Assembly: GCA_037200385.1 (NCBI GenBank)
Contig: JBBCGL010000001.1
Location: forward strand, 4,417,418 to 4,481,417
Direction of reading: 5' to 3'
From: Rhizomicrobium sp.
Lineage (GTDB): Bacteria > Pseudomonadota > Alphaproteobacteria > Micropepsales > Micropepsaceae
Length of the DNA: 64,000 nucleotides
Part shown: positions 7,362-10,180 of the stretch, piece by piece
Position numbering within the stretch: position 1 is the first letter of the stretch
Layout: each line of letters begins with the position of its first letter
Program-made: the position numbers and the translations under genes
Notes under the pieces: generated by a model
Database searches by the model: none
Told to the model about the DNA's origin: nothing
What the model saw: the letters and a program-made list of their open reading frames with translations, nothing else

Positions 7362-7673
7362 CTAGTTCAGCACGTAGGGGAGCAGCGCCATGAACCGCGC
7401 GCGCTTGATGGCGTTCGCGAGCAGGCGCTGCTTCTTGTTGGACACCGCGGTGATGCGGGAGGGCACGATCTTGCCGCGCTCGGAGATGAAGCGCTGCAGC
7501 AGCTTCACGTCCTTGTAGTCGATCTTCGGCGCATTGGCGCCGCTGAACGGACAGGTCTTCTTGCGGCGGAAGAAGGGACGGCGCTGGCCACCCTCGCCGC
7601 CACGGCCGCCTTCGCGGCCACCGCCGCCACCCTCGCGGCCGCCGCCGCCGGAACGTTCGCCACCAAAGCTCAT
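7362..7673 (-). CDS. rpsR: 30S ribosomal protein S18 with Gly/Arg-rich N-terminal tail
   Basis: S18 sits in the platform of the small subunit and pairs with S6. The conserved core starts near residue 33 ([11 protein letters not shown]) and continues [25 protein letters not shown] to the end. From the ATG at 7673 the product is 103 residues, against about 75 in E. coli. The added first 32 residues are almost wholly Gly, Arg and Glu, with arginines at 7, 13, 20, 24, 31 and 32 in glycine context, including one RGG. The start overlaps the rpsF stop as ATGA, so the two genes are translationally coupled. The frame stays open further upstream but that would read through rpsF in another frame. Confidence 0.95.
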
Positions 7674-8044
7674 TGTGCGGTCTCCTGCTGGGCGTCCTCG
7701 GGCTTGCGCTCGCCTTCGGGGCGATCGTCGCGGCGGTTCTTGTTCGAGGAGACCTCGAACGCATCCACGCTCACGGTGATGTAGCGCAGCACGTCTTCGT
7801 TGATCTTGAGCTGGCGCTCGAGCTCGACGACGGCCTTGGAGGGCGCGTTGATGTTGAGGAGCACGTAATGCCCCTTGCGGTTCTTCTTGATGCGATAGGC
7901 GAGGCCGCGCAGGCCCCAATATTCCTGCTTCTCGACCTTGCCGCCTTCGCCTTCGACGATGGTCTTGAGGTGGGTCGCCAGCGCGTCGACCTGCTGCGCG
8001 CTGATGTCCTGGCGCGCGATCAGGAGATGCTCGTAGAGAGCCAT
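7670..8044 (-). CDS. rpsF: 30S ribosomal protein S6
   Basis: S6 binds 16S rRNA together with S18 on the subunit platform. The 124-residue protein begins [15 protein letters not shown], carries the [16 protein letters not shown] core and ends in a hydrophilic, charged tail from about residue 100 ([16 protein letters not shown]). The ATG at 8044 is chosen because it gives the family N-terminus; an in-frame extension to 8305 is not supported. It is the first gene of the rpsF-rpsR-rplI operon and overlaps rpsR by four bases. Confidence 0.97.
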
Positions 8045-8283: not shown

Positions 8284-8457
8284 CTACCAGCCCCAGCCGC
8301 GGCAATAGCGGTCATGGTGATGGTGATGCCAGCCCCAGCTCGTGCAGTGGCGATGGCCGTGATGGCCGCCCCCGATATGGATGGACAGGGCCTCGGCCGG
8401 AGCCACGGCGGCGCCGAGCAGGCCCAGCGCGAAGACGGATGCGATCAATGCTTTCAT
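8284..8457 (-). CDS. Small secreted His/Trp/Cys-rich peptide 1
   Basis: A 57-residue frame starts at ATG 8457 with GAGGG just upstream. Residues about 1-23 form a Sec signal peptide ([21 protein letters not shown]). The mature part of about 34 residues is rich in His, Gly and Trp, with [13 protein letters not shown], a second Cys in RYCRGWGW and a C-terminal Trp. It is a clear paralogue of the next peptide upstream, 32 bases away on the same strand and of equal length. The pair of cysteines and the His runs suggest binding of Zn, Cu or Ni in the periplasm or outside; that is inference. Such short His-rich exported peptides occur widely in alphaproteobacteria without known function. Confidence 0.75.
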
Positions 8458-8489
8458 GGTTCAATTCCCTCTTTCAGATGATGGTGCTT

Positions 8490-8663
8490 TTACCAGCCCC
8501 AGCCGCGGCAGAACCGCGAGTGGTGATGGTGCCAGCCCCAGGACGTGCAGTGGCGGTGATGATGCCAGCCGCCATGATGGCCATGCCAGCGGGCTTCTGC
8601 GACGCCGGTGCTGGCGCCGATCAAAGCCACCGCGATCGCGGCAGCCGAGATAATCTTTTTCAT
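8490..8663 (-). CDS. Small secreted His/Trp/Cys-rich peptide 2
   Basis: A 57-residue frame starts at ATG 8663 with GAGGG seven bases before it; an in-frame longer version to 8717 lacks a ribosome site. The signal peptide is MKKIISAAAIAVALIGAST with cleavage likely after VAEA. The mature peptide repeats the plan of its neighbour: [17 protein letters not shown], then RFCRGWGW at the end. Both cysteines and all the Trp positions of the C-terminal half are kept between the two copies while the signal peptides differ. This suggests selection on the mature parts after tandem duplication. Probably one two-gene transcript. Function unknown. Confidence 0.78.
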   Translation of the reverse strand: MKKIISAAAIAVALIGASTGVAEARWHGHHGGWHHHRHCTSWGWHHHHSRFCRGWGW

Positions 8664-8688
8664 GGGAGATCCCTCATCAGGTTGGACT

Positions 8689-8702
8689 AGTCGTCGACGA
8701 CT
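8689..8702. promoter_or_regulatory. Perfect 14-bp palindrome upstream of the His-rich peptide genes
   Basis: AGTCGTCGACGACT is a perfect palindrome 26 bases before the start codon of the His-rich peptide 2 gene. Its place in the likely 5' leader or promoter suggests an operator, or a small hairpin in the mRNA. No regulator can be assigned from the sequence. Confidence 0.4.
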
Positions 8703-8785
8703 CTCCGTTAACGACATTGTTTACGCGAAGTTCCCTGCCCCTCACAGCCCAAATCTTCGGCTTCCGCGCCTGAACGCAGCATGAA

Positions 8786-8799
8786 TGACGCTTGCGTCA
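8786..8799. promoter_or_regulatory. Palindrome TGACGCTTGCGTCA upstream of MFS gene
   Basis: The arms TGACGC and GCGTCA flank a two-base centre about 40-80 bases upstream of the possible MFS starts. An AT-rich segment (TTAGTTTAAATT) follows directly and may be the promoter core. The position fits an operator. The Crp/Fnr-type regulator encoded downstream of the MFS gene is one candidate binder, but its own likely site at 10826-10847 reads differently. Confidence 0.4.
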
Positions 8800-8836: not shown

Positions 8837-10180
8837 ATGCGCATAGTTGGTCGCAACAAGGGCTTGGGGGCAAGGCGTATGGCGGATATCGGCGCGAGGG
8901 TGTTTGCGAAAGCAACATGGCGGCTGATTCCCGTGATGGTGCTGCTCTATCTCGTCGCCTTCCTCGACCGGGTGAATGTCAGCTCCGCGGCGCTGACCAT
9001 GAACAAGGACCTGGGGATGGGCGAAGCCGCCTATGGCTGGGGCGCCGGCGTGTTCTTCCTCGGCTATTTCCTGTTCGAGGTGCCGTCGAACGTGATCCTG
9101 GAAAAGGTCGGGGCGCGGCTCTGGATCGGCCGCATCATGCTGACCTGGGGCGCGGTCTCGATGGCGACCGCGTTCGTGACGGGACCGCTGAGCTTCTGCG
9201 CCGCGCGCTTCATGCTGGGGCTTGCGGAAGCCGGCTTCTTCCCCGGCATGGTGCTCTATCTGACCTATTGGTTTCCCGGTCCCATGCGGGCGCGGCTGCT
9301 CGCGCTGTTCATGGTGGCGCTGCCGCTCACCAATGTGATCGGCCAGCCGATCTCCGGGTTCATCCTGCAGATGGAGCTGGTCCACCGGCTGCATGGCTGG
9401 CAATGGCTGTTCCTGCTCGAGGGCGCGCCGTCGGTCCTCCTCGGTCTGGCCGTCCTGTGGTGGCTGCCCAGCACGCCCGCCGACGCCAAATGGCTCAGCG
9501 AGGACGAGCGCGCCACGATCGCCGCCGCCCTCGCGGAAGACCCGCCGCACGTCCATACCGGCCTGTGGCCGATGTTCCGCGATCCGCGCGTCTGGCTGCT
9601 GACGCTGCCCGATTTCTGCATCGTGCTGTCGCTCTACGGCATCAATCTGTGGCTGCCGCAGATCGTGCGCGGCATGGGCTTCTCGGTCCTCGACAGCAGC
9701 CTGATCTCGGCGCTGCCCTATTTCGTCTCGGTCTTCGCGATGGTGCTGTGGGGCCTGTCGAGCGACGCGCGGCGCGAGCGCATCTGGCATATCGCCGCCG
9801 CGGCGTTGTTCGGTGCCGCCGGGCTGGTCGGCGCGGCGCTGCTGCATGATCGCATCGCGGTGCTGGTGTCGCTCACCGTCTGCGTCTGCGGCGTCTATGC
9901 GGCGCTGTCGGTGTTCTGGACCCTGCCGCCCTCCTTCCTCGGCGGCACCGCCGCGGCGGGCGGCATCGCGCTGATCAATTCGATCAGCAATCTCGGCGGC
10001 CTCGTCGGGCCCGGCATGATGGGTTGGCTGAAGGCGCAGACCGGAAACTTTTCCGCCGGGCTCGGCGTGCTGGCGCTTGGCCTGATCGCGGCGGCGGTGC
10101 TGGTGGTCATGATCGGCCGCACGATAACCTTCGCCGGACGCGCCGCGGCGCTGGAGCGCTACACGCGGCTCAATGCCTGA
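8837..10180 (+). CDS. MFS transporter, anion:cation symporter-like
   Basis: This is a 12-helix major facilitator, 447 residues from the ATG at 8837, which has GGAG six bases upstream; a second possible ATG at 8879 would give 433 residues. The FLDRVNVSSAALTMNKDLGM start, VFFLGYFLFEVPSN and the region LAEAGFFPGMVLYLTYWFP are typical of the ACS family, which moves organic anions such as phthalate, glucarate or tartrate with protons or sodium. The substrate cannot be read from sequence. The gene ends 21 bases after the stop of the convergent Crp-type regulator gene (tail-to-tail overlap). The nearby 2-oxoglutarate dioxygenase suggests uptake of its substrate, which is inference. Confidence 0.85.
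   Translation: MRIVGRNKGLGARRMADIGARVFAKATWRLIPVMVLLYLVAFLDRVNVSSAALTMNKDLGMGEAAYGWGAGVFFLGYFLFEVPSNVILEKVGARLWIGRIMLTWGAVSMATAFVTGPLSFCAARFMLGLAEAGFFPGMVLYLTYWFPGPMRARLLALFMVALPLTNVIGQPISGFILQMELVHRLHGWQWLFLLEGAPSVLLGLAVLWWLPSTPADAKWLSEDERATIAAALAEDPPHVHTGLWPMFRDPRVWLLTLPDFCIVLSLYGINLWLPQIVRGMGFSVLDSSLISALPYFVSVFAMVLWGLSSDARRERIWHIAAAALFGAAGLVGAALLHDRIAVLVSLTVCVCGVYAALSVFWTLPPSFLGGTAAAGGIALINSISNLGGLVGPGMMGWLKAQTGNFSAGLGVLALGLIAAAVLVVMIGRTITFAGRAAALERYTRLNA

What the first reader, a model, noticed from the sequence alone, without database searches (positions are those of the whole stretch)
8284..8663. Tandem pair of exported 57-residue His/Trp/Cys peptides
Two equal-length peptides in tandem share [13 protein letters not shown] and CRGWGW while their signal peptides and linkers differ. 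The mature parts carry two fixed cysteines, four conserved Trp in the C-terminal half and several His runs. This suggests a metal-binding or surface-active extracellular peptide family kept after duplication. One of the two is below the usual length cut-off and would be missed in annotation. A palindrome sits upstream of the first gene of the pair.
Basis: partly seen in the sequence, partly recalled or inferred. Interest (0 to 1): 0.7.

Follow-up and report, generated by a model that had tools for sequence, protein, structure and literature searches.

The report
Stress-controlled exported histidine-tryptophan-cysteine peptide pair
Two tiny exported peptides rich in histidine, tryptophan and cysteine form a real, conserved mini-operon that appears to be switched on by the bacterium's general stress system, probably to protect the cell envelope by catching metal ions; the protein family has no name yet.

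Summary
Window 8284-8457 (A) and 8490-8663 (B), minus strand, are 57-residue ORFs, 61% identical, with signal peptides ending AEA and ~33-residue mature parts. Homologues exist in the genus; the tandem recurs in two other species. Over codons 25-57, A differs from one of these by 0 nonsynonymous and 4 synonymous changes: genes under purifying selection. (1) The mature part is an internal duplication, R-x-C-x2-W-x-W twice around a His-rich turn. (2) The pair looks like a closed transcription unit: GGAAC-N16-CGTT, the published promoter motif of the alphaproteobacterial general-stress sigma factor EcfG, lies 71 bp before B, and a terminator hairpin follows A. The motif is kept in 4 of 5 syntenic species and precedes nepR in 8 of 8 genomes. 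(3) A third paralogue follows a UrcA-family gene with the same motif. The exact motif is not enriched genome-wide, so position and conservation carry the argument. Best reading: a general-stress-induced exported peptide pair that buffers metal or protects the envelope. Regulation is well supported by sequence; metal binding is plausible, untested. No curated family is matched above cut-off.

The parts
8284..8457 (-). peptide A gene, 57 aa, exported (signal peptide [23 protein letters not shown], mature [34 protein letters not shown])
   Evidence: ORF; mature part identical in G066; cleavage site inferred from the AxA pattern, no signal-peptide program run
8490..8663 (-). peptide B gene, 57 aa, exported (mature [33 protein letters not shown])
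   Evidence: ORF; conserved start, ribosome-binding site and homologues; cleavage site inferred
8466..8471 (-). GAGGGA, likely ribosome-binding site of A
   Evidence: read; inference
8670..8675 (-). GAGGGA, likely ribosome-binding site of B
   Evidence: invariant in 4 of 4 aligned loci
8710..8734 (-). EcfG-type promoter motif GGAAC-N16-CGTT, 71 bp before B
   Evidence: same motif (N16 or N17) before nepR in 8 of 8 genomes
8769..8785 (-). conserved block TTCATGCTGCGTTCAGG (TTCA-N7-TTCA direct repeat), possible activator site
   Evidence: kept in the 4 motif-bearing loci; the pattern TTCANNCTGNGTTCAG occurs once in the genome
8222..8257 (-). hairpin plus T run after A, likely rho-independent terminator
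   Evidence: 51-nt stretch folds at -26.8 kcal/mol, z -3.65; equivalents in 4 other loci. The simple consensus scan did not flag it; its stem has an internal mismatch
8689..8702 (.).
8837..10180 (+). divergent MFS transporter (neighbour, not part of the unit)
   Evidence: PF07690, E 1.9e-43
7670..8044 (-). rpsF (neighbour, downstream of the terminator hairpin)
   Evidence: named by recognition, kept in syntenic loci

Best explanation
B and A form a two-gene unit of the alphaproteobacterial general stress response. Stress activates PhyR, PhyR removes the anti-sigma factor NepR, and freed EcfG transcribes B-A from GGAAC-N16-CGTT; a terminator ends the transcript before rpsF. Both products are exported and cut after AEA, releasing two ~33-residue peptides. 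Each is a duplicated R-x-C-x2-W-x-W unit folding as a Cys/Trp hairpin with a His-rich turn. In the periplasm or outside, the His/Cys cluster buffers transition metal ions (Cu, Zn or Ni) and so limits metal and redox damage to the stressed envelope. Shown by sequence: genes, selection, promoter motif, terminator hairpin, internal repeat. Inferred: transcription by EcfG (pathway from established knowledge), export. Weakly modelled: hairpin. Inferred and untested: metal buffering.
For: Motif at -65 to -72 before the first peptide gene in 4 of 5 syntenic loci; between window and G035 the boxes stay while only 3 of 16 spacer bases agree (sequences, my count; alignment). Same motif before nepR in 8 of 8 genomes (7, G031 by position). 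Own genome has phyR, nepR, ecfG and a kinase-like ORF together. Published consensus GGAAC-N16-CGTT in Rhizobium etli (PMC3892343, passages). Of 26 rpsF loci in which a regular expression found no peptide within 1.5 kb, 0 carry the motif on that strand. Terminator-like hairpins after the last peptide in 5 of 5 loci. Purifying selection. Paralogue C behind a UrcA-family gene with the motif in front; in Caulobacter urcA, of unknown function, is induced by U, Zn and Cu through UzcRS (PMC8963506, passage). Mature parts hold 8-11 His and 2 Cys. Predicted hairpin, strands 36-44 and 49-56, block pLDDT 70-80.
Against: The exact N16 motif is not enriched genome-wide: 50 matches against 58 for the reversed control; by a crude frame test 32 of the 50 sites lie inside a long high-GC3 frame on one strand or the other. 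In the window there are 3 matches where shuffles give 0.85. The 4 loci are not fully independent, G066 and G067 being similar upstream. G053 lacks the motif, as do 12 of 15 further family genes or loci (G053 among the 12). No metal gene recognised beside the pair. Trp and Arg are as conserved as His, which a pure metal buffer would not need. [quoted passage not shown] AlphaFold mean pLDDT is 64 and pTM 0.28. No expression or binding data.
Confidence: 0.45

Rival explanations
1. Same regulation and export, but the peptides act on the envelope: Trp/Arg/His hairpins bind outer membrane, peptidoglycan or other envelope proteins and stabilise them under stress. Metal binding is incidental.
For: Trp and Arg of the R-x-C-x2-W-x-W units are kept in all 8 mature parts compared, one W being F in G035. 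Several other motif-preceded ORFs in this genome look like small exported or membrane proteins (L235, L262, L263, L269; chosen by eye).
Against: His number is high in all 8 mature parts, and the core [23 protein letters not shown] is identical in the three A-type copies.
Confidence: 0.3
2. Secreted antimicrobial or competition peptide, made as a two-peptide pair under stress.
For: Tandem pair, signal peptides, cationic Trp-rich mature parts.
Against: No immunity or dedicated export gene recognised in the unit, which is closed by a terminator hairpin. A is kept nearly unchanged rather than diversified. At this locus G053 and G035 have a single peptide gene.
Confidence: 0.08
3. Precursor of a modified peptide, for example of the methanobactin/bufferin type made by MNIO enzymes, with Cys or Trp as the modified residues.
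For: Conserved Cys and Trp at fixed places near the C-terminus.
Against: No MNIO enzyme (PF05114) found in the genome, while the control finds it in Caulobacter. No modifying enzyme recognised by eye among the adjoining ORFs; other enzyme classes were not searched.
Confidence: 0.05
4. Small regulatory peptide acting on a sensor kinase or transporter in the membrane.
For: Paralogue D in G066 and G067 lies ~0.75 kb before a HisKA_2 kinase gene, the kinase type of this stress system.
Against: That is a distant paralogue; no kinase was recognised next to the pair in the window. The divergent MFS gene also stands beside rpsF in 18 loci without peptides.
Confidence: 0.08
5. Not a gene: a chance His-rich ORF pair from repeated DNA.
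For: Short ORFs; long ORFs also exist on the other strand.
Against: dN well below dS, same tandem in three species, conserved ribosome-binding site, promoter motif and terminator hairpin.
Confidence: 0.01

Closest known systems
NCBIfam NF040554 mini_HHHH (HHHH-motif protein)
   Same: A 45-position model of a tiny protein; 1 of 12 members of A2 (G035) matches it from residue 1 to 40, E 1.4e-4.
   Different: 22 bits against a cut-off of 40; the other 11 members, both window peptides included, do not match it at E up to 1. The match ends before the second Cys/Trp unit.
EcfG general-stress regulon of alphaproteobacteria (Rhizobium etli, Sphingomonas melonis)
   Same: Promoter motif GGAAC-N16/17-CGTT at a short distance; phyR, nepR and ecfG in the genome. 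The S. melonis target list holds many hypothetical proteins and one 'predicted small secreted protein' (PMC6599016, passages).
   Different: No such His/Trp/Cys peptide described in the passages read; EcfG dependence not measured here.
UrcA family (TIGR04433)
   Same: A member (55.1 bits, cut-off 25) sits in front of paralogue C in G000, with the same type of motif ahead; a similar ORF, not scanned, does so in G067. Linked in Caulobacter to U, Zn and Cu.
   Different: Different sequence; not beside the pair in the window.
Hpn/Hpn-2 of Helicobacter (nickel-binding, His-rich paralogues)
   Same: Small His-rich paralogous pair (PMC4671568, abstract and outline); a functional parallel only.
   Different: Described there as acting on intracellular nickel; no sequence relation tested.

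Membership tests
EcfG (general stress response) regulon | GGAAC-N16/17-CGTT promoter a short distance before the start codon | tested here: met
   at -71 in the window; 4 of 5 syntenic loci. Caveat: string not enriched genome-wide
EcfG (general stress response) regulon | organism has PhyR, NepR and EcfG | tested here: met
   all three in one locus (EcfG named from sigma-70 domains and its place behind nepR); NepR in 8 of 8 genomes
EcfG (general stress response) regulon | expression lost without ecfG or phyR | not testable with these tools
   needs a deletion strain
NCBIfam NF040554 mini_HHHH | score above the curated cut-off of 40 bits | tested here: not met
   best 22 bits (G035); window peptides no match
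MNIO-modified metallophores / bufferins | MNIO (PF05114) partner enzyme | tested here: not met
   0 matches in the genome, control positive in 2 of 14
metal-buffering peptides | binds transition metals at useful affinity | not testable with these tools
   composition only
PF13801 Metal_resist | score above gathering cut-off 29.2 bits | tested here: not met
   15.1 bits for B; 3 of 12 members match weakly, best E 0.0042

The most novel reading that the evidence does not exclude
An undescribed family of exported mini-proteins built from two R-x-C-x2-W-x-W units around a His turn serves as an effector arm of the alphaproteobacterial general stress response, a secreted metal-chelating and redox-active hairpin pair deployed together with UrcA-type proteins. 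This would give part of the regulon's unnamed small exported proteins a common job, extracytoplasmic metal control.
Probability: 0.3. Interest if true: 0.7.

Novelty: new variant of a known kind. Interest (0 to 1): 0.45.

Why it matters
Alphaproteobacterial general-stress target lists hold many hypothetical proteins (for example the S. melonis list, passages). This is a clean case: a closed two-gene unit with an identifiable promoter motif, strong selection on a ~33-residue product and a testable chemistry. It also shows how small exported peptides can be mis-started by mechanical annotation (the 75-aa version of B starts inside the promoter motif).

Tried and rejected
A profile scan of genome contigs gave 143 pattern stretches, none confirmed by tblastn. 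Absence elsewhere is therefore not proven by these scans.

No match in plasmids at E <= 1e-3; only weak matches among solved structures, best E 0.045; no Rfam match in the window at gathering scores. CtrA and UzcR sites were considered for the upstream blocks: the UzcR half sites CATTAC-N6-TTAA do not resemble TTCATSCTGCGTTCAGG; a second paper was searched for the UzcR consensus without letters found (PMC12864828, passages); CtrA was judged from memory only. The sigma-70 scan found 0 sites, and the same scan's terminator test flagged only a + strand hairpin at 8786-8799, not the one after A. The palindrome was rejected as a feature. No fold search was run, since a low-confidence hairpin would match anything.

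Literature: nine searches of open PMC text; in their listings (capped at 10 to 20 rows; held more papers than shown) I saw no title or abstract on this family. Subscription papers are mostly not held.

Full report
What is there. Two 57-codon ORFs lie head to tail on the minus strand, B (8490-8663) first and A (8284-8457) after 32 bp. They are 61% identical. Each has a signal-peptide-like start ending in AEA (judged by eye), leaving mature parts of 34 (A) and 33 (B) residues with 10-11 His, 2 Cys, 4-6 Trp and no Lys. The window lies in a single-contig 5.0-Mb genome.

Genes, not chance. The B protein searched against 96 genomes of the family matched in 17 at E <= 0.01, part of them chance frames or signal peptides only, but clear homologues stand out in the same genus, and G066 and G067 keep the tandem pair in the same order. 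With a 12-member profile (A2), 20 matches in 11 of the 96 genomes span at least positions 1-58 of 60; all are in the window's genus, and 2 of the 20 contain a stop. The other matches of that call (30 of 96 genomes have one at E <= 0.001) reach position 55 at most and I do not count them. In a class-wide draw of 385 genomes, with at most 15 candidates scored per genome, 2 matched at E <= 1e-4: the window's own genome and G031 of the same genus. Codon comparison of A with its orthologues gives dN 0.10 and dS 0.59 (G066), dN 0.14 and dS 0.84 (G067). Over codons 25-57, A against G066 shows 0 nonsynonymous and 4 synonymous differences; B against G066 gives dN 0.28 and dS 1.59 overall. The synonymous rate of A against G066 is also lower in the mature part than in the signal peptide, on few sites.

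Internal repeat. All 8 mature parts compared contain two copies of R-x-C-x2-[WF]-x-W (RHCTSWGW and RYCRGWGW in A), joined by a His-containing stretch. AlphaFold with a 10-sequence alignment predicts a hairpin (strands 36-44 and 49-56) at block pLDDT 70-80, but overall pLDDT is 64 and pTM 0.28, so this is a hint only.

A closed transcription unit. Upstream of B lies GGAACTTCGCGTAAACAATGTCGTT (8710-8734, minus strand). GGAAC-N16-CGTT is the published EcfG1 motif in Rhizobium etli (PMC3892343, passages); Sphingomonas melonis has GGAAC-N17-20-GTT (PMC6599016, passages). In the five species where the peptides sit beside the MFS gene, four (window, G066, G067, G035) have the exact motif at -65 to -72; G053 does not. 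The alignment of these four shows the boxes, the GAGGGA ribosome-binding site and a 17-bp block TTCATSCTGCGTTCAGG as invariant islands. The 16-bp spacers of the window and G035 agree at 3 of 16 places (my count on the sequences); G066 and G067 are similar to each other upstream, so the four are not fully independent. The motif (N16 or N17) stands before nepR in 8 of 8 genomes: 7, and G031, where my expression had failed, by position. The window's genome has PhyR, NepR and EcfG in one locus, with a kinase-like ORF after them (the kinase was named by eye). After the last peptide gene a GC-rich hairpin followed by T residues stands in 5 of 5 loci, z from -2.7 to -5.8, with 0 shuffles folding as well in each; in G053 and G035 the T run starts a few bases after the stem. 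The simple terminator scan did not flag the window's hairpin.

Controls on the motif. The exact N16 string is not enriched in the whole genome: 50 matches against 58 for the reversed pattern; the window has 3 where shuffles give 0.85. I fetched all 50 sites (47 stretches). By a crude frame test 18 are intergenic and 32 lie inside a long high-GC3 frame on one strand or the other; in such GC-rich DNA that test over-calls, since 5 of the 6 Pfam-named ORFs below except CsbD and the dehydrogenase stand at sites it calls 'inside' (4 of 6). The motif is therefore only meaningful by position and conservation. I picked by eye 20 downstream ORFs to read and gave 10 proteins to Pfam; 6 of 10 had hits: CsbD, PRC-barrel, DUF1328, DUF6894, 6PGD and an alcohol dehydrogenase. 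CsbD, PRC-barrel and similar small proteins are, from memory, typical of this regulon. RpsF was found in 64 of 69 genomes of the genus and 30 loci were handed out. Of these 30, a regular expression finds a peptide within 1.5 kb upstream in 4, and 3 of the 4 carry the motif on that strand. The other 26 carry none; G028 offered only 114 bp, and G067's peptides lie about 4 kb from rpsF. In 22 of the 30 both rpsF and the MFS gene are seen, on opposite strands, with about 188-493 bp between them in the 18 without peptides and 559-853 bp in the 4 with. The peptide unit thus looks like a module that comes and goes between two older neighbours.

Other members. A third paralogue (C) in the same genome (G000:C1:3882965-3883156) follows a UrcA-family gene (TIGR04433, 55.1 bits, cut-off 25) about 80 bp behind GGAACGGGTTTTCGCGATAGCCGTT. 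G067 has a similar ORF, not scanned, before its copy, with an N17 motif; that copy has an early stop. In G066 and G031 the peptide follows the dienelactone hydrolase gene with neither the extra ORF nor the motif. Of the 15 genes scanned over 900 bp (G000 C, G067 C, G049) have the motif and 12 do not, G053 included. In Caulobacter urcA, of unknown function, is induced by U, Zn and Cu through UzcRS (PMC8963506, passage). Paralogue D (G066, G067) lies ~0.75 kb before a HisKA_2 kinase.

Function. I commit to a stress-induced exported peptide pair with metal buffering as the likeliest job (0.45), an envelope-binding role second (0.30). Regulation by EcfG I hold at about 0.85 and export at about 0.9, both my judgement. 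A modified peptide of the MNIO type is unlikely: PF05114 was not found in the genome while the control finds it in 2 of 14 reference genomes.

Against known families. Neither window peptide reaches a Pfam or NCBIfam cut-off; the best sub-threshold labels for B are rodlin (17.2 of 75 bits), VPA0510 (16.4 of 95) and Metal_resist (15.1 of 29.2). NF040554 (HHHH-motif protein) is hit by 1 of 12 members, G035, at 22 bits against 40. The pair is thus not filed in a named family; it behaves, by its DNA signals, like a small exported protein unit of the EcfG regulon.

Noticed in passing
8769-8785 (-): Block TTCATSCTGCGTTCAGG, a TTCA-N7-TTCA direct repeat, is present in the 4 loci that have the EcfG-type motif and absent from G053 and the 18 rpsF-MFS loci without peptides (23 loci scanned). 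It may be an activator site; its owner is unknown.
   Followed up: partly
L064:2965-3772 (G000:C1:3882965-3883771): UrcA-family gene followed by a third family peptide, with an EcfG-type motif in front; a similar arrangement in G067.
   Followed up: partly
L235:740-1012 (+): A 91-aa exported-looking protein (VCNRFGDCWH...HHRNGYHWRDRH) starting 67 bp after the first base of an EcfG-type motif, no Pfam or NCBIfam match at E 0.001; a similar-looking ORF stands near the family peptide of G049 (L030).
   Followed up: no
L269 (G000:C1:4071400-4074000): Three EcfG-type motifs in 1.2 kb, each ~50 bp before a small exported-looking ORF.
   Followed up: no
L026 (G067:C1:130000-141000): In G067 about 4 kb separates rpsF from the peptide pair, although the pair still sits beside the MFS gene.
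   Followed up: no
L031:2410-5505 (-): A 1031-aa ORF that looks by eye like an RND efflux pump is the nearest large gene to the family peptide of G027; not tested against any family.
   Followed up: no
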